50,140 nt of DNA from Deltaproteobacteria bacterium GWC2_65_14. GTDB lineage: Bacteria > Desulfobacterota > Deferrimicrobia > Deferrimicrobiales > Deferrimicrobiaceae. Below are positions 43,332 through 50,140 of this stretch, piece after piece (within the stretch, counting starts at the first letter, position 1; each line of letters starts with the position of its first letter). A model generated the notes under the pieces. It did no database searches. It was not told where the DNA came from and saw nothing but the letters and a program-made list of their open reading frames with translations. Both the position numbers and the translations under genes were made by a program. The stretch is taken from positions 9,897-60,036 of the forward strand of contig MGPV01000049.1 of the NCBI GenBank assembly GCA_001797615.1, given 5' to 3'.

Positions 43332-44540
43332 CTACTTCGCCCGCTCCTTCATGATCTCCTCGCAGCTGGGCATGTAGTCCTTTCCGGACACCGACAGGAT
43401 GTCGCCCGCGACGAGAAACTCGTATCTCGGCGATTTCCTGGTCACGCCGAAGTACATCGGCAGCACGATCTGGTGGTCGCAGGCCCGCACCTCCAGGGTG
43501 CCGATGGGGCTGTCTGCCGTCATCCCCTCCAGGGCGTCGATGAACTTCTCCTTGTCGATCTTCCCGGCCTTCGCATAGGCCTTCTCGAGGAACTGCGCCG
43601 CCATGTACCCGTAGACGGCCCCGCTCTTGGGATGCCGGTGGAACCGCTTCTGGAACTCCTCCGCGAAGGACTTGTTCTCCTTCGTGTCCGGGTAGTAGAA
43701 GAGGTAGTTCGCGGTTCCGAACACCCCTTCCGGCGCGTTCTGCCCCTGCGGCATCAGGGTGGAGAGCTCGATCCCGGTGTGCTGGTAGAAGGGGACCCGC
43801 TTGTTGAACCCGGTGGACTGCGCCGCCTTCTGGAAGTTCACCATGCTCCCGCCGCCGGTGGCGACGATCACGAAATCCGGCTTCGCCGCGAGGATCTGGG
43901 TGATGTAGGGGGTAAAGTCGCTCTCCCGCATCTTCCACCAGGTTTCTCCCAAAAGCGTAACCTTCGGGTTCAGCTTCTTCAGGTTGCCGAAGATGCTCTC
44001 CGCGATCGCGTGCCCGTACTCGTAGTCGTCCCCGGCGATCCAGTACCTGGCGTACGGCTTCTTCGCGAGCACCGTCGCCGTGGCCCGTCCGATCATGTCC
44101 GTGTTCTCGTTCATGCCGAACACGTAGCGGTGTCCCTTCTCCCCGGTGATCTTCCCGCTCTTGGAGAAGGTCACGAGGAAGGGGACCTTCTCCTTCTTCG
44201 CGAGGTCGGAGATCGCCAGCGCCGTCGCGCTGTTGATCGTGCCCATGAGGATGTCGACGTTCTCCTGGAGGATCAGCTCCTTCGCCAGCGTCAGCCCGAC
44301 GTCCGACTTGAAGGTGTCGTCGCGCAGCAGCACCTCGATCTTCTTCCCGAGCACGCCCCCCTTCGCGTTGATCTTGTCCACCGCCATCTGGAACCCGTCC
44401 CGCACGTCGTTGGTGTAGGTCGTCACCGGCCCGGTGTAGGTGTCCACGATCCCCACCTTGATCGTGTCGCCGGCGAATCCCGTTGCGGCCACCACGCACG
44501 CCAGTACGACTCCCCCCAGGAACAATCCGATCCGCCTCAT
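43332..44540 (-). CDS. Periplasmic substrate-binding protein of liv-type ABC system 3
   Basis: A 402-residue type I periplasmic binding protein. A signal peptide (MRRIGLFLGGVVLACVVAATG then FAGDT) is followed by IKVGIVDTYTGPVTTYTNDVRDGFQMAVDKINAKGG. ATG 44540 overlaps the stop of the feruloyl-CoA-synthase-like gene as ATGA. This tight linkage suggests that the transported compound is the ligase substrate, perhaps a phenylpropenoic acid. Confidence 0.92.
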   Translation of the reverse strand: MRRIGLFLGGVVLACVVAATGFAGDTIKVGIVDTYTGPVTTYTNDVRDGFQMAVDKINAKGGVLGKKIEVLLRDDTFKSDVGLTLAKELILQENVDILMGTINSATALAISDLAKKEKVPFLVTFSKSGKITGEKGHRYVFGMNENTDMIGRATATVLAKKPYARYWIAGDDYEYGHAIAESIFGNLKKLNPKVTLLGETWWKMRESDFTPYITQILAAKPDFVIVATGGGSMVNFQKAAQSTGFNKRVPFYQHTGIELSTLMPQGQNAPEGVFGTANYLFYYPDTKENKSFAEEFQKRFHRHPKSGAVYGYMAAQFLEKAYAKAGKIDKEKFIDALEGMTADSPIGTLEVRACDHQIVLPMYFGVTRKSPRYEFLVAGDILSVSGKDYMPSCEEIMKERAK

Positions 44541-46408
44541 CGCTTCCCCCCATTTGGTATGAAGTAGAGGACAACCACGTCCGGGTCCGGCTTCGCCGCG
44601 TACAACCGCTCCAGGAGCCCTTTCCGCCGTTCCAGGGCCGCCCTCTGGTTGATGTATCCCTTGTCGGTGATCTCGTTCGCGTCGATCGAGGGCGGCTCGG
44701 TCATGAGCAGCAGCCGCCCGACCCTCGCCGCGGAGCCCTCCTGCCGGGCGTTGTGGTCCGCCAGCGCCTTGCGCAGGTGATCGACCACCTCCCGCCTCCG
44801 GACGAGCGCCTCGACCGGCAGCGTCCCGTCGGCGTCCCCGCAGAGCTGCCGGCATCCCTGGAGATTCGGCCAGGCGAGGATCCCGACCTCCGCCCGGTCG
44901 TGGCCGGCCACCAGGGCATCCTGGAGCGCGGGAGCGGCCGCCGCCATGACGGCCAGCCGCAGCGTCCCCGCGTGGACCCAGGTCCCCGTGTCGAGCTTGA
45001 AATCCTCCGCGACCCGCCCGTCGAAGGCGATCCCCTTGGTGGGATCGCCCGGGTCGACGAACCTTCCCGCGTCGCCGATCCGGTAGAACTCCTCGTCGTC
45101 GAACGCCTCCCGGGTCAGGTCCGGACGGTTCAGGTAGCCGGGGGTGACGTTCGGCCCCTTGACCCGCAGCTCCAGCTTCCCTCCTCCGGGCACCATCTTG
45201 AGGATCACCCCCGGGCAGGGAAGCCCGATGACCCCCGCCTGCTCGATGAGAAAGTGGGCGGAGGTGGCCAGCGGAGCGGTTTCCGTCGATCCCCAGGAGG
45301 AGGTCATGGGCACCCGCTTCCCGGTCGCCTGCACGGAGACCGCCTCCAGGCGCCTCCACAGATCCTGGGACAGGGCGGCCCCGGCGTAGAAGATCAGCTG
45401 CAGCCGGCGGAAGAAGCTGCCGCGCAGCGCCTCGTCCCTCTCGAGGAAGGGAAGCAGCATGGAGAAGCCGGCCGGAACGTTGAAGTAGATGGTCGGGGAG
45501 AGCTCGGCCAGGTTCCTCACCGTCTGCTCCACCATGCCGGGGGCCGGCTTTCCGCCGTCGATGTAGAGGGTCCCCCCCCGCTTGAGGACCAGGTTGAAGT
45601 TGTGGTTCCCCCCGAAGGTGTGATTCCAGGGAAGCCAGTCGACCAGGACCGGCGGGGTCTTTTCCGTGAACGGCCACACCTGGGCCAGCATCTGCTGGTT
45701 CGCGCAGAGCATCCCGTGGGTGTTGATCACCCCCTTGGGGAGGCCGGTCGACCCGGAGGTGAAGAGGACCTTGGCGACGGAGTCGGGGCCCACCGCCTGG
45801 AACGCCTTCTCCACCGCATCCGTGGCGGGAGGTTCCAGCAGGACGGAAAAGGGGGTGGCGCGGAGTCCGGCGGCCTCCCCTCCCCGGGTGACCACCTCCA
45901 CCCCGGCAAGGTCCAATGCCCCGAGGGCCCTGGCGAACATCCTGCCCTGCTCGGCGAAGACCAGCCCGGGCCGCACATCCCCGAAGATGGCCCGAAGCTT
46001 TGCAAAGTCCTGGCTCAGCAGCGAATAGGCCACGGAGACCGGCACCACCGGGACCCCCGCAACGAATCCCCCGAGCATGAGCAGCGCATGGTCGATGGAG
46101 TTCCCGGAGAGGATCATCACGGGACGCTCCGGGCCCAGCCCCCGGTCGATCAGCGCCTGGGCGACGGAATCGGCGAGGCGGGCGGCCTCCCGGTAACTCT
46201 GGAGCCGCCACTGCCCCGAGGGCTCCCGCTCCCCGAGAAAGGTCCTCATGGGCGCCTCCGCCGCCCAACGGCGCAGGAGAACCCCCAGGCTTCTATCGCA
46301 GGGTTCCAGGGGGACGGGGGAGCGGAGAAGATAGCCCCCTCCCGGGGTGGTCTCCACATCGACCCTCGCCGGCGCGAAGTCGATCGGCGCGAATCCGGCC
46401 CGGTTCAC
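44537..46408 (-). CDS. fcs: Feruloyl-CoA synthase-like AMP-forming ligase (module 3)
   Basis: A 623-residue ANL-superfamily ligase with features of feruloyl-CoA synthases. The P-loop is FTSGSTGLPKGVINTHGMLCANQ, followed by WLPWNHTFGGNHNFN. The A5 motif is TSSWGSTETAPLA and the C-terminal segment is ANEITDKGYINQRAALERR, with the catalytic Lys before GYIN. Length fits that family (about 620). It would activate ferulate, p-coumarate or a similar acid to its CoA ester in the cytoplasm. It lies 22 bases after the aldehyde oxidoreductase gene and overlaps the binding-protein gene. Confidence 0.87.
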   Translation of the reverse strand: MNRAGFAPIDFAPARVDVETTPGGGYLLRSPVPLEPCDRSLGVLLRRWAAEAPMRTFLGEREPSGQWRLQSYREAARLADSVAQALIDRGLGPERPVMILSGNSIDHALLMLGGFVAGVPVVPVSVAYSLLSQDFAKLRAIFGDVRPGLVFAEQGRMFARALGALDLAGVEVVTRGGEAAGLRATPFSVLLEPPATDAVEKAFQAVGPDSVAKVLFTSGSTGLPKGVINTHGMLCANQQMLAQVWPFTEKTPPVLVDWLPWNHTFGGNHNFNLVLKRGGTLYIDGGKPAPGMVEQTVRNLAELSPTIYFNVPAGFSMLLPFLERDEALRGSFFRRLQLIFYAGAALSQDLWRRLEAVSVQATGKRVPMTSSWGSTETAPLATSAHFLIEQAGVIGLPCPGVILKMVPGGGKLELRVKGPNVTPGYLNRPDLTREAFDDEEFYRIGDAGRFVDPGDPTKGIAFDGRVAEDFKLDTGTWVHAGTLRLAVMAAAAPALQDALVAGHDRAEVGILAWPNLQGCRQLCGDADGTLPVEALVRRREVVDHLRKALADHNARQEGSAARVGRLLLMTEPPSIDANEITDKGYINQRAALERRKGLLERLYAAKPDPDVVVLYFIPNGGKR

Positions 46409-46430: not shown

Positions 46431-48794
46431 TCATCCTCCCGAAAGGATCCGCATCACGACGACCTGGTCGCCGTTTCGGACGGGAGCGTCCTGCTCGTTC
46501 GAAAGGATCAGTCCGCCGTTCACCGAAACGACCAGGGAACGGTCCTCGAGTTTCTTTGCCGCGTGGGGGAGCCGCCGGTTCAGCGCCTCCCGCAGTTCCG
46601 CGGCGCTCCTCACCGGCTCGTCCACGATGACCGCTCCCTCCGGGGCTCCCGGGATGTCGTCGGGGAGGGCGACTTCGACGGCGAATCCGGTGGTCACCTC
46701 CGCGAGGCGGCGGTGCCACGCAAGCGACGGGACTCCCGCGCCGTTGAGCCCGAGGAGGGCGTAATAGCGGGCCTTGAGCTGCGCGAACCGGGCCCGGTCG
46801 ATCTTCTCCCCGGAGAAGGGCCCTCCCCGGATCTCCTCCTCGAACCAGCGGTCCGGGAGGGTGTCGTCCTTCTCGGTCAGCCCCAGGCGCGCGTTGAGGA
46901 GACGCTCGATCCCGGTGATGTTGCGGCCGATCCCGTCGAGCTGCTCCGGGGTGAACTCCTCCCCGGTCAGCTCCCTGACCTGCAGGGCGAACTCCTCGCA
47001 CCCGGCGGTGGAGGGGGAGTTGAAGAGCTTGGTCGCGAAGCGGCAGACGCCGACGGCGTCCCCCACCGCGAAGGTGTTCTCGCAGGCCCGGACCGCATGC
47101 TCCTTCCCGTCGTAGCGGTTCGGCTCCGGCGACACGGATCCGCCGTAGAGGGCTCTCTTGAACTCCGGGTCGTCGTTGATCCGGGCGTTGATCTCGAGGG
47201 TGGGACGGTTCCGGAGGTGATCCATCCCCCGCGTGGAGACGGCGACGCCGAGGGCGAAGCCCTTGAGGATCCTCGAGTCGTGCGGGTCGGTCTGGAAGAG
47301 CCCCTTGACGGCCATCCGGTAGCGGAGGGCCTCCCGAGGATATCTCCCCCGCTCCACCGCCCGGGAGGAGTCGGCAATGACGTCGCCGAACCCTTCCCGA
47401 CGGGCCGTCAGGAAGAGCAGCTTCTCGATCACCTCGTAGTTGCCCCAGGTCAGCTCGAGCCCCCCGGTGTCCTCCCGGGAGAGGATCCCCCGCTGGTACA
47501 GCTCCATGGCCCAGGCGATGGCGCTTCCGGTGCTGGCCGAGTCGAGCCCCAGGTCGTTCAGGATGTTGTTCAGCCGCAGGACCTGCTCGGGCTCCCGGAG
47601 CCCGACCATCGGGCCCATCTTCCCCAGGGTGACGTAGTCGGGGCCCTCCCCCTTGTCGTGCCGGTCGAAGGAGCCGTCGCCCCGGATCCCCCGGTAGTTC
47701 TTCTCCCGCCGATGCTCCCGGTCCGCCTGGCTCTCGTCATAGGGGGCGTTCCCGGCCACTCCCTTGAGCGCGCTGGCTCCCCACCCCCCTACCCCCTCGG
47801 GGGTCATGTCGTTCAGGGGGCGGCACCGGACGGGACATTTCAGGCAGCTGTCCATGCCGGTGCGGTAGGGGTCGAGATTGCCCGCGTCCAGGGAGTCGTC
47901 CCAGACCGTCTCCTGGTTGTTCCTGACCGCGATGGCCCCCAGGATCCGGCTCGGCTTGTAGAGGAAGGGGGTCCCGACTTTTTTCAGCGCATGCTTGACC
48001 GCGCTGGCCGACAGGACCTTCCGGGCGAACTCCCGGTTGTTCTCCTTGAAGGCCTGCGAGAGGTCGGGATGTGTGCAGCGCCCCCGGATCATGACCGCCT
48101 TGAGCCGGAGGGAGCCCATCTTCGCCCCCGTGCCCCCGCGGGCGTAGATCGCCTTGGGTCCCCCCATGATTCCGGAGCAGAGGACCAGGTTTTCCCCGGC
48201 CCGGGTGATCCTGGCCAACGCCATGTCCTTGCGCTCGGTGCAGGTGAAGTCGCGCTCGACGGCCCGGACGAGGTCGATGTTGTCCATGCCGAGGTAGGAG
48301 GCGGCGTCGTGGAAGCGGACCCGTTCCTCCGAGATCTCGAGGAGGGTCCACCCCGCGGAGCGCCCGTAGAGGACCAGGTGATCGTAACCGTGCAGCTTGA
48401 GGAAGGTGGGAAAGCCATCCCCGCAGTTGCTGTCGAGGAATGCGTCGCTGTCCGGGGCGATGCTGCTGACGTTCCCCCGCGCGGCGGTGGGAACCGTCCC
48501 GGTGAGGACCCCGCTGCCGAAGATCAGGGGAACTCCGGGGTCCAGCGCCTCCCGCCCGTCCGGCAGCAGGTTGTAGAGGAGGAACATGTTCCCGCCGCGG
48601 CCGCCGAGGAAGGTGCGGAAGACCTCCCGGGGGAGGTACCCGGAGCGATGCTCCCGGCGCTCCAGGTCGACGAAGAGCACGGCCCCCTGCGTCGGGTACC
48701 GGGGACGGTCGTGCATCCGGCCCGACAGCCGCTCCACCTTTTCCCGGATGTCCATGACCCCTTCGACGACCTCCCGTTCCGCGAACCGTTCCAT
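46431..48794 (-). CDS. Aldehyde:ferredoxin oxidoreductase fused to a MoaD/ThiS-like domain
   Basis: A 787-residue protein. Residues 35 to about 690 form an AOR-family tungsten/molybdenum bis-pterin enzyme, with FLGGRGGNMFLL, the pterin loop SNCGDGFPTFLKLHGYDHLVLYG and GRGGLG-like ARGGTGAKMGS. The [4Fe-4S] cysteines are in CLKCPVRC (C-x2-C-x3-C) and GVCRF. The last ~66 residues resemble MoaD/ThiS sulfur carriers (LVVSVNGGLIL, RNGDQVVVMRIL) and end in SGG, giving a free C-terminal Gly-Gly. The protein is longer than typical AORs (about 610). ATG 48794 has a weak GGGGG; ATG 48755 is an alternative. Substrate could be an aromatic aldehyde. Confidence 0.87.
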   Translation of the reverse strand: MERFAEREVVEGVMDIREKVERLSGRMHDRPRYPTQGAVLFVDLERREHRSGYLPREVFRTFLGGRGGNMFLLYNLLPDGREALDPGVPLIFGSGVLTGTVPTAARGNVSSIAPDSDAFLDSNCGDGFPTFLKLHGYDHLVLYGRSAGWTLLEISEERVRFHDAASYLGMDNIDLVRAVERDFTCTERKDMALARITRAGENLVLCSGIMGGPKAIYARGGTGAKMGSLRLKAVMIRGRCTHPDLSQAFKENNREFARKVLSASAVKHALKKVGTPFLYKPSRILGAIAVRNNQETVWDDSLDAGNLDPYRTGMDSCLKCPVRCRPLNDMTPEGVGGWGASALKGVAGNAPYDESQADREHRREKNYRGIRGDGSFDRHDKGEGPDYVTLGKMGPMVGLREPEQVLRLNNILNDLGLDSASTGSAIAWAMELYQRGILSREDTGGLELTWGNYEVIEKLLFLTARREGFGDVIADSSRAVERGRYPREALRYRMAVKGLFQTDPHDSRILKGFALGVAVSTRGMDHLRNRPTLEINARINDDPEFKRALYGGSVSPEPNRYDGKEHAVRACENTFAVGDAVGVCRFATKLFNSPSTAGCEEFALQVRELTGEEFTPEQLDGIGRNITGIERLLNARLGLTEKDDTLPDRWFEEEIRGGPFSGEKIDRARFAQLKARYYALLGLNGAGVPSLAWHRRLAEVTTGFAVEVALPDDIPGAPEGAVIVDEPVRSAAELREALNRRLPHAAKKLEDRSLVVSVNGGLILSNEQDAPVRNGDQVVVMRILSGG

Positions 48795-48850: not shown

Positions 48851-49792
48851 TCAGCGCGGCTCGAGCGCCTTGACCAGCCCCCGGACCATCGTGTTGAAGG
48901 GGGTGGCGATCCCGGCCTGCGCTCCGTACTCGATGATCTTGCCGTTGATGTAGTCGATCTCGGTCCTCCGTCCCGCCTCGATATCCTGGCGCATGGACGG
49001 CTTGTGGTGCCCCGCGCTCCGGATGTAGCCGACGCAGTAGGGGTAGAAGTCCGGGCCGAGGAAGATCTCGTTCGCCCGGGCCACGGCGATCCCCTCCTTG
49101 ATCAGGGAGTCGACCAGGGTGAAGAGGATCGGGTCGCTGATGACCTCGGCCATCGTCTTGCCGGTGATCGCGCAGATCGGGTTCATGCAGGCGTTCATGA
49201 CCGCCTTCCGCCAGACCATGCTCAGGATCTGCCCGGTGTGGACGGTGTCGAGCCCGCACCGGGTGAGGACCTCGCAGATCGCGACGGCGGCCTTGCGCGC
49301 CCCGGGGTCGAGCTCCTGGAGAACGTGGGGGCGATGGTGGAAGGCGAGCCGGACGTGGCCCGGAGCGATCGGAACGCACCCGAAATTCACGACCGCCCGC
49401 AGGACATGCTCCGGCCCCAGGTGGTGCGCGAGGACCCGTTCGGTGTCGATGCCGTTCTGCCAGCTGATCACGTACCGCCCCTCCCCCGGGTACCCCTCGA
49501 GGGCGGAGGCGATCAGCGGGAGCGCCGTCGCCTTGACGGCGACGAGGATCACGTCGGGAGGATCGTCGAGGATCTCCTCGATCCGGGGGGTCGTCCGGGC
49601 CACCTTCGCCTTCAGGATGTCGGTCCCCTCGATCCGGATCCCGGGATCGCGCGCCGGCGCAAGGAGCGACGGTACGATGTCGCACAGGGTGACCTCGCAC
49701 CCCCCCTTCGAGAGAAACGCGGCGATGACGTTGCCGACCGGCCCGGCTCCGATGACCGCGAACTTCTTCGGCCTGTAGCGTCGTTTTGCCAT
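48851..49792 (-). CDS. Ketopantoate reductase-family protein (PanE/ApbA)
   Basis: A 313-residue NAD(P)-dependent reductase with the N-terminal Rossmann motif VIGAGPVGNVIAAFLSKGG and ILVAVKA followed by SWQNGID. The C-terminal ketopantoate-reductase segment carries the catalytic Lys (MVWRKAVMNACMNPICAITG). The family includes 2-dehydropantoate 2-reductase of CoA synthesis and many relatives of unknown substrate. It lies 56 bases upstream of the aor gene and 3 bases after the ACT protein. A supply role for CoA is conceivable, but a different 2-oxo acid is possible. Confidence 0.85.
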   Translation of the reverse strand: MAKRRYRPKKFAVIGAGPVGNVIAAFLSKGGCEVTLCDIVPSLLAPARDPGIRIEGTDILKAKVARTTPRIEEILDDPPDVILVAVKATALPLIASALEGYPGEGRYVISWQNGIDTERVLAHHLGPEHVLRAVVNFGCVPIAPGHVRLAFHHRPHVLQELDPGARKAAVAICEVLTRCGLDTVHTGQILSMVWRKAVMNACMNPICAITGKTMAEVISDPILFTLVDSLIKEGIAVARANEIFLGPDFYPYCVGYIRSAGHHKPSMRQDIEAGRRTEIDYINGKIIEYGAQAGIATPFNTMVRGLVKALEPR

Positions 49793-49795
49793 CGG

Positions 49796-50140
49796 CTACC
49801 CCGGATTCTCGAGGATCCCGAAGTCGTCGGCGCTGAGCAGCCTGACGTGGTTCCGCTTCAGGATCTCGATCGCGCGGTCGTTGTCGCTGAACCGGAAGAC
49901 CATCACCGCCTTCCCGGAGGTCCCCCCGGCAAGGGCGTACATGTACTCGACGTTCACCCGGCTCTCCTTGAACGGCTTGAGCACCCTGGCCAGGCTGCCG
50001 GGAACGTCGTCGATCTCCGCGGCGACGACGTCGTCGATCCGGGCCGGGAGCTGCTTTTCCATGACCACCCGGCGGGCCCGGGCGACGTCCGACACGAGGA
50101 TGCGAAGGACCCCGAAGTCGGAGGTGTCGCTGATGCAGAG
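49796..50140 (-). CDS. ACT-domain protein, 5' end beyond the window
   Basis: The frame is open to the window edge and encodes LCISDTSDFGVLRILVSDVA followed by a second ACT unit (AEIDDVPGSLARVLKPFKESRVNVEYMYAL). It ends in RLLSADDFGILENPG. The first ACT domain is therefore cut. Proteins of this tandem-ACT type are about 140 residues, and 114 are visible. They bind amino acids or related ligands and are often encoded near PaaK-type ligases and oxidoreductases of aromatic or indole metabolism. A GTG at 50095 could be read as a start but would lose half of the domain. Confidence 0.85.
   Translation of the reverse strand, partial: LCISDTSDFGVLRILVSDVARARRVVMEKQLPARIDDVVAAEIDDVPGSLARVLKPFKESRVNVEYMYALAGGTSGKAVMVFRFSDNDRAIEILKRNHVRLLSADDFGILENPG

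What the first reader, a model, noticed from the sequence alone, without database searches (positions are those of the whole stretch)
46431..48794. Aldehyde:ferredoxin oxidoreductase carrying its own MoaD/ThiS-like tail with terminal Gly-Gly
The AOR-family protein continues into a MoaD/ThiS-like beta-grasp domain that ends exactly in SGG at the stop codon. Free-standing MoaD-like genes are known in some aor operons, and MoaD needs a C-terminal Gly-Gly for thiocarboxylation during molybdopterin dithiolene formation. A covalent fusion to the enzyme that uses the cofactor could deliver sulfur or cofactor in cis, or be cleaved after assembly. I do not know of a described case.
Basis: partly seen in the sequence, partly recalled or inferred. 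Interest (0 to 1): 0.75.

Follow-up and report, generated by a model that had tools for sequence, protein, structure and literature searches.

The report
Tungsten-type oxidoreductase fused to sulfur carrier
A tungsten-type bacterial enzyme carries, welded to its own end, the small sulfur-carrier protein that normally helps build its metal cofactor; the join was briefly noted in one genus in 2006, but here it proves to be an old, widespread and strictly conserved design that could show how a sulfur carrier is matched to one particular enzyme.

Summary
The minus-strand ORF 48794→46431 (787 aa) is an aldehyde:ferredoxin oxidoreductase-family protein (AFOR_N, AFOR_C) running, with no spacer, into a MoaD/ThiS-type beta-grasp domain that ends in Gly-Gly at the stop codon. 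The tail's predicted structure matches E. coli MoaD best. It is not an assembly artefact: 77 of 77 complete homologues (Desulfuromonadales, Rhodocyclales, Gammaproteobacteria) have the same fusion, and all end in GG although the codons vary. The distance from core to C-terminus is nearly constant, there is no conserved internal start, and no free-standing Ubl or E1 gene lies within 8 kb. All sampled fused forms are one clade. In other AOR clades of the phylum the tail's homologue is a separate gene directly downstream, so this is the AOR-linked MoaD (WorX) made covalent. The architecture is not new: Iyer et al. 2006 noted it in Azoarcus. Most likely the tail is thiocarboxylated while attached and supplies sulfur for the pterin dithiolene of this enzyme. 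Whether that happens in cis is untested, and cleavage is neither needed nor supported. Unexpectedly, the host genome and its whole class lack MoaE, so the partner that receives the sulfur is unknown.

The parts
46431..48794 (-). Fused AOR/WOR-family oxidoreductase with C-terminal MoaD/ThiS domain, 787 aa (stop codon at 46431-46433)
48081..48683 (-). AFOR_N domain (residues 38-238), metallopterin-binding
   Evidence: Pfam PF02730 E 1.4e-43
46704..48032 (-). AFOR_C domains 2 and 3 (residues 255-697). Fe-S ligand cysteines C317, C320, C324 and C584 and His526 (PfAOR H448) are invariant in 42 homologues
   Evidence: Pfam PF01314 E 4.3e-87; alignment with 1aor; column counts
46434..46706 (-). MoaD/ThiS-type beta-grasp tail (last 91 residues; first strand begins at about residue 706)
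   Evidence: Pfam ThiS E 8.8e-8 on the tail alone; AlphaFold model pLDDT 85; Foldseek best hits E. coli MoaD 1nvi_D/1fm0_D
46434..46439 (-). Terminal Gly786-Gly787 directly before the stop codon
   Evidence: invariant in 77 of 77 complete homologues with mixed codons
48851..49792 (-). Ketopantoate-reductase-like (ApbA/PanE) gene directly upstream, in the same direction
   Evidence: Pfam ApbA and ApbA_C; ACT-ApbA-AOR order kept in related deltaproteobacterial loci
49796..50095 (-). ACT-domain protein (ACT_8), first gene of the conserved ACT-ApbA-AOR block
   Evidence: Pfam PF19571 E 1.2e-16
44537..46408 (-). AMP-binding acyl-CoA-ligase-like gene 22 bases downstream, in the same direction
   Evidence: Pfam PF00501 E 3.6e-50; relatives near fused AORs in L036 and L182
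40069..44492 (-). Branched-chain-amino-acid-type ABC transporter (binding protein, two permeases, two ATPases) following the ligase
   Evidence: Pfam

Best explanation
The protein is a tungsten-type oxidoreductase (WorL) permanently joined to its own AOR-linked sulfur-carrier Ubl (MoaD/WorX type). Most likely an E1-like enzyme (the single MoeB/ThiF of this genome) adenylates the free C-terminal glycine while the domain is attached, a sulfur donor turns it into a thiocarboxylate, and the sulfur goes into the dithiolene of the pyranopterin that this enzyme binds. The tail thus acts as a built-in, enzyme-specific maturation factor and is kept rather than cut off. Shown here: domain order, fold, invariant C-terminal GG, near-constant spacing, one clade, the split form as an adjacent gene in other AOR clades, absence of a separate Ubl beside fused genes. 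Inferred: adenylation, thiocarboxylation, use for this enzyme's cofactor. Not decided: whether sulfur is handed over in cis on pterin already bound by the same chain, or in trans to a separate molybdopterin synthase; and whether the metal is W or Mo.
For: Fold and family: Pfam ThiS in 58 of 58 tails; NCBIfam moaD and moaD_arch each in 56 of 58, thiS in 28 of 58, with best E 1e-8; Foldseek best hits E. coli MoaD, with the MoeB-MoaD acyl-adenylate complex 1jwb at rank 5. Selection on the functional end: GG at the stop in 77 of 77, varied codons, among only three invariant tail columns. Split counterpart: searching the tail alone in the phylum found separate 92-99 aa GG-ending Ubl genes, directly downstream of AOR genes in L021, L023, L025, L027 and L028. 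No free Ubl or E1 gene within up to 8 kb of fused genes. The activating enzyme exists: one ThiF/MoeB in the genome. Literature: adding aorDE (AorD/E resemble MoaD) raised activity, and with extra tungstate W content, of A. aromaticum AOR (PMC9295118; PMC6365974); T. kodakarensis Ubls serve W-cofactor synthesis, UblB specifically for one W enzyme (PMC11323500).
Against: No direct evidence that the tail is thiocarboxylated or that cofactor formation depends on it. MoaE, the usual acceptor of MoaD sulfur, is not detected in this genome or in any of 26 genomes of its class. Fused AORs are not linked to cofactor-synthesis genes. Some class relatives without the fusion also show no clear MoaD, only ThiS, a TtuB-like Ubl and the RelA TGS, so the tail is not demonstrably the cell's required MoaD. 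The clade lacks the active-site Glu of PfAOR (E313), so its substrate is uncertain.
Confidence: 0.6

Rival explanations
1. General carrier in trans: the AOR-borne tail serves as a MoaD for molybdopterin synthesis in the whole cell, and its attachment to AOR is incidental.
For: In the window's genome the tail is the only MoaD-type Ubl found; the others are ThiS in the thi operon, a TtuB-like Ubl beside a PP-loop ATPase, and the RelA TGS domain. MoaC and up to five PF00384 proteins are present, so pterin cofactor seems to be needed elsewhere. Ubls can be shared between pathways (PMC11323500).
Against: Class relatives without the fusion also lack a clear MoaD. Rhodocyclales and Gammaproteobacteria with the fusion have separate MoaD and MoaE. 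It does not explain why the partner is always this one AOR clade.
Confidence: 0.17
2. Structural or regulatory role: the tail is a fixed subunit-like domain (docking to a ferredoxin or partner, or an autoinhibitory plug), or a SAMP-like modifier, and the GG is used for interaction or conjugation rather than sulfur.
For: Spacing is nearly constant and the junction is predicted to be ordered. Archaeal Ubls both carry sulfur and are conjugated to proteins (PMC11323500).
Against: A purely structural domain would not need both terminal glycines at the exact stop in 77 of 77 while most of the rest varies. An interaction role alone does not explain the MoaD-type assignment or the adjacent-gene Ubl in other AOR clades.
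Confidence: 0.15
3. Processed fusion: the tail is cut off after or before assembly, like MoaX of M. tuberculosis.
For: Precedent of cleavage in a MoaD-MoaE fusion (PMC4326299).
Against: MoaX must be cut because its GG is internal; here the GG is already terminal. There is no variable or disordered linker, spacing is 143-145 residues in 68 of 68, the junction has pLDDT about 94, and only 4 of 77 have any start codon with an upstream Shine-Dalgarno-like motif near the tail.
Confidence: 0.05
4. Assembly or frameshift artefact joining two genes.
For: The window comes from a draft assembly of 67 contigs.
Against: The same single-frame fusion is found in 77 other complete loci, including isolates of Aromatoleum, Motiliproteus, Amphritea, Geothermobacter and Sedimenticola.
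Confidence: 0.005

Closest known systems
AOR-MoaD fusion of Azoarcus (Iyer, Burroughs and Aravind 2006, PMC1779556, Fig. 3 and Table 1)
   Same: Same domain order: MoaD fused carboxyl-terminal to aldehyde ferredoxin oxidoreductase. Aromatoleum/Azoarcus homologues (L038, L040, L043, L046) are about 66% identical over the whole length, and those put in the tree lie in the same 100%-supported clade.
   Different: The 2006 note names one genus and says nothing of extent, conservation of GG, spacing, host cofactor genes or mechanism. That its protein is the direct orthologue is inferred; the record was not read here.
WorX, the free-standing ThiS-like gene beside tungsten oxidoreductases (PMC13328260), and AorD of A. 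aromaticum
   Same: MoaD/ThiS-type Ubl tied to a WOR-family enzyme; predicted cofactor role.
   Different: Separate genes, not part of the enzyme chain. The text of the 2026 classification does not mention a WorL-WorX fusion.
T. kodakarensis UblB/UblC (TK2118, TK1065; PMC11323500)
   Same: Ubls with terminal Gly-Gly needed for W-cofactor; a specific Ubl-enzyme link was inferred.
   Different: Free proteins; the basis of specificity is unknown there, whereas here the link is covalent.
MoaX of M. tuberculosis (MoaD-MoaE fusion; PMC4326299)
   Same: MoaD domain in a fusion with a functionally linked protein.
   Different: Fused to the MPT synthase large subunit with an internal GG, and cut for activity.
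P. furiosus AOR (1aor) and A. aromaticum AOR (8c0z)
   Same: Same fold over the core (Foldseek E 2e-32 and 4e-29); four Fe-S cysteines and the active-site His kept.
   Different: No tail; the clade has about 50 extra residues between the third Fe-S cysteine and the EGPxY motif and lacks PfAOR Glu313.

Membership tests
AOR / tungsten-containing oxidoreductase (WOR) family | AFOR_N plus AFOR_C domains and the AOR fold | tested here: met
   Pfam; Foldseek 1aor TM 0.80 by target length
AOR / tungsten-containing oxidoreductase (WOR) family | Four Cys ligands of the [4Fe-4S] cluster | tested here: met
   C317, C320, C324, C584 invariant in 42 of 42
AOR / tungsten-containing oxidoreductase (WOR) family | Active-site Glu and His (PfAOR E313, H448) | tested here: inconclusive
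   His kept in 42 of 42; Glu position is V, I, T, S or A in all 42. Not known to be required in every WOR clade.
AOR / tungsten-containing oxidoreductase (WOR) family | Binds tungstopterin and oxidises aldehydes | not testable with these tools
   needs protein
MoaD/ThiS sulfur-carrier Ubl family | Beta-grasp fold | tested here: met
MoaD/ThiS sulfur-carrier Ubl family | Gly-Gly at a free C-terminus | tested here: met
   77 of 77
MoaD/ThiS sulfur-carrier Ubl family | Curated family score | tested here: met
   PF02597 above cut-off. The window tail is below the NCBIfam equivalog cut-offs of moaD and thiS, so the exact subfamily is not fixed.
MoaD/ThiS sulfur-carrier Ubl family | C-terminal thiocarboxylation by an E1-like enzyme | not testable with these tools
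   one ThiF/MoeB homologue present in the genome
Described AOR-MoaD fusion (Azoarcus type) | MoaD domain carboxyl-terminal to AOR in one chain | tested here: met
Canonical molybdopterin synthase system (MoaD + MoaE) | MoaE partner in the same genome | tested here: not met
   PF02391 absent in the own genome and in 26 of 26 of the class; the probe rings in 11 of 14 controls
Processed MoaD fusion (MoaX type) | Internal Gly-Gly that must be released by cleavage | tested here: not met
   GG is at the stop codon

The most novel reading that the evidence does not exclude
In MoaE-less bacteria this oxidoreductase acts as its own molybdopterin synthase: the pterin precursor binds the apo-enzyme and the attached, thiocarboxylated tail inserts the dithiolene sulfurs in cis, so cofactor synthesis and insertion happen on one polypeptide ('late' sulfuration on the target enzyme, an idea raised for T. 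kodakarensis in PMC11323500).
Probability: 0.1. Interest if true: 0.88.

Novelty: new member of a known kind. Interest (0 to 1): 0.5.

Why it matters
How a particular sulfur-carrier Ubl is matched to a particular tungsten enzyme is stated to be unknown (PMC11323500), and the function of the AOR-linked Ubl (WorX) is described as unknown (PMC13328260). A natural, single-clade fusion with a free and invariant Gly-Gly turns that into a simple test: mutate the last two codons and measure metal, pterin and activity of one purified protein. The same genomes lack MoaE, a gap already called unexplained for Geobacter metallireducens in 2009 (PMC2700814).

Tried and rejected
1) Frameshift or mis-join: rejected, same single frame in 77 other complete loci. 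2) Tail separately translated from an internal start: rejected, no conserved start or Shine-Dalgarno-like signal. 3) A second free Ubl, or an E1 gene, next to fused AORs: none found (its MoaE profile was partly built from wrong-strand sequence, so the MoaE part of that call is not used). 4) The idea that the AOR tail replaced a lost MoaD/MoaE pair in this lineage: attractive, because the own genome has no other MoaD, but relatives without the fusion also lack MoaE and mostly show no clear MoaD, so the link is not specific. 5) Sequence-only PDB search with the single tail gave only weak hits (SAMP2-like, E 0.19); the alignment profile and the predicted fold settled it. 8) In the five unfused AORs of the phylum nearest in sequence to the fused core, and in the genome's own second AOR, no Ubl was found nearby, so the split arrangement is sporadic.

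Full report
WHAT IS THERE. The ORF lies on the minus strand, ATG at 48794 and stop codon at 46431-46433, 787 residues. Pfam gives AFOR_N (38-238), AFOR_C (255-697) and ThiS (721-787, above the curated cut-off, reaching the last profile position).

THE TAIL IS A MoaD-TYPE BETA-GRASP DOMAIN. All 58 related tails hit Pfam ThiS. NCBIfam moaD and moaD_arch each match 56 of 58 and thiS 28 of 58, so the family as a whole leans to MoaD; the window's own tail alone is below the equivalog cut-offs. A profile of the tails finds E. coli MoaD first among PDB sequences (E 9e-4). The predicted structure (pLDDT 85, strands and helices in beta-grasp order) matches E. coli MoaD in MPT synthase best (1nvi_D E 2.7e-5; 1fm0_D TM 0.78), then CysO, the MoeB-MoaD acyl-adenylate complex and SAMP1.

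IT IS OLD, WIDESPREAD AND UNDER SELECTION. One scan of the species-representative genomes returned 78 loci. In 77 the C-terminus is complete, and all 77 are fused and end in GG at the stop; the other is cut by its contig end. Four further fused genes seen in whole-genome searches (L009, L010, L166, L169) also end in GG. Tails are 35-75% identical to the window's, and only three tail positions are invariant, two of them the terminal glycines. Gly codons are mixed (GGC, GGA, GGG, GGT) and all three stop codons occur, so the constraint is on the protein. In a tree of 42 fused and 10 unfused AOR cores the fused proteins are one side of a single branch (100/100), with Thermodesulfobacteriota and Pseudomonadota mixed, which suggests one origin and later transfer between phyla (the unfused rows have long branches, so only the unity of the fused set is used). 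In the window's own phylum sample it is rare: 3 of 297 genomes.

THE SPLIT FORM EXISTS. Searching with the tail alone in the phylum found free 92-99 aa proteins ending in ILAGG or IIAGG. In L021, L023, L025, L027 and L028 they lie directly downstream of a distant AOR in the same direction (in L025 the gap is 10 bases). This is the AOR-adjacent MoaD of Iyer et al. 2006 and the WorX of Putumbaka et al. 2026. No such gene, and no E1 gene, is found within up to 8 kb of the fused AORs. The fusion therefore joins a gene pair that occurs separately elsewhere.

THE TAIL PROBABLY STAYS ON. The distance from the conserved DTLP motif to the C-terminus is 143-145 residues in all 68 proteins measured, 64 of them exactly 144. 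In the full-length model (pTM 0.87) a helix (691-701) leads into the first strand (706) with mean pLDDT about 94 across the junction. No internal start is conserved. Unlike MoaX, whose MoaD is internal and must be cut, this Gly-Gly is already free.

HOW IT MOST LIKELY WORKS. The genome has one ThiF/MoeB-type E1, as T. kodakarensis does, where a single E1 is presumed to serve several Ubls. The simplest model is adenylation and thiocarboxylation of the attached tail and use of the sulfur for the pyranopterin dithiolene of this enzyme. Indirect support: aorDE, whose products resemble MoaD, improved activity and, with tungstate, W loading of A. aromaticum AOR; and T. kodakarensis Ubls are needed for W-cofactor, one of them specifically for one enzyme. 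None of these steps was tested here.

A COMPLICATION. MoaE (PF02391), the protein that holds the pterin while MoaD gives its sulfur, was not detected in the window's genome, in any of 26 genomes of its class, or in 18 of 40 genomes examined that carry the fusion, all of them deltaproteobacterial. MoaC is present, and so are several PF00384 proteins, some of which may be NuoG-like rather than molybdoenzymes. The missing MoaE of G. metallireducens was already called unexplained in 2009. In this genome the AOR tail is the only MoaD-type Ubl. But class relatives without the fusion also lack MoaE and mostly have no clear MoaD, and Pseudomonadota with the fusion keep MoaE. So the fusion and the missing MoaE cannot be tied together from these data. 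A very divergent MoaE could also escape the profile.

CONTEXT. In the window the order on the minus strand is ACT-domain protein, ApbA/PanE-like reductase, fused AOR, AMP-dependent ligase, branched-chain-type ABC transporter. ACT-ApbA-AOR is conserved in several deltaproteobacterial relatives, often with the ACT-ApbA pair doubled, and a related ligase occurs in L036 and L182. Elsewhere fused AORs sit near 2-oxoacid:ferredoxin oxidoreductase-like genes, PaaK-like ligase, ferredoxin, MarR and TRAP-transporter genes. This points to catabolism of a carboxylic or amino-acid-derived compound, not to cofactor operons. The substrate is open: the Glu near tungsten in PfAOR (E313) is V, I, T, S or A in all 42 aligned members, and the first Asp of one pterin motif (PfAOR D338) is Asn in all (the roles of these PfAOR residues are from general knowledge of that structure).

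NOVELTY. The architecture was published in one line in 2006 for Azoarcus and is not mentioned in the text of the 2026 WOR classification. What is added here is extent, single clade, invariant GG, near-fixed spacing, the split counterpart, and the host's lack of MoaE. I rate it a new member of a known kind, of moderate interest because it makes an open question directly testable.

Noticed in passing
window residue Val388 of the ORF (codon 47631-47633) and homologues: The active-site Glu of P. furiosus AOR (E313) is replaced by V, I, T, S or A in all 42 aligned fused AORs, and Asp338 of a pterin-binding motif is Asn in all; the clade may not be an ordinary aldehyde oxidoreductase.
   Followed up: partly
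own genome G000 and its class (26 genomes): MoaE (PF02391) is undetected in the whole class although MoaC and several PF00384 proteins are present in this genome; an unknown MPT synthase partner may operate.
   Followed up: partly
L006 (G000:C13:9508): 65-aa Ubl ending SVVSGG directly before a PP-loop ATPase, a TtuB/TtuA-like tRNA thiolation pair.
   Followed up: no
window 48851-50095; L031, L034, L036, L075, L181: A conserved pair of an ACT-domain protein and an ApbA/PanE-like reductase, often in two tandem copies, travels with the fused AOR in deltaproteobacteria; function unknown.
   Followed up: partly
L007 (G000:C29), RelA/SpoT-like protein: Weak ThiS-profile hit is the TGS domain of a RelA/SpoT-like protein, a false positive for MoaD counts.
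   Followed up: yes
L009, L010, L100: upstream of fused AOR: A transglutaminase-core protein of about 220 aa lies immediately upstream of the fused AOR in the Geothermobacter-type loci and L100.
   Followed up: no
L179 (G000:C44): The genome's second AOR-family gene lacks a Ubl tail, is only about 27% identical, and has a run of N inside, so its integrity is unclear.
   Followed up: partly
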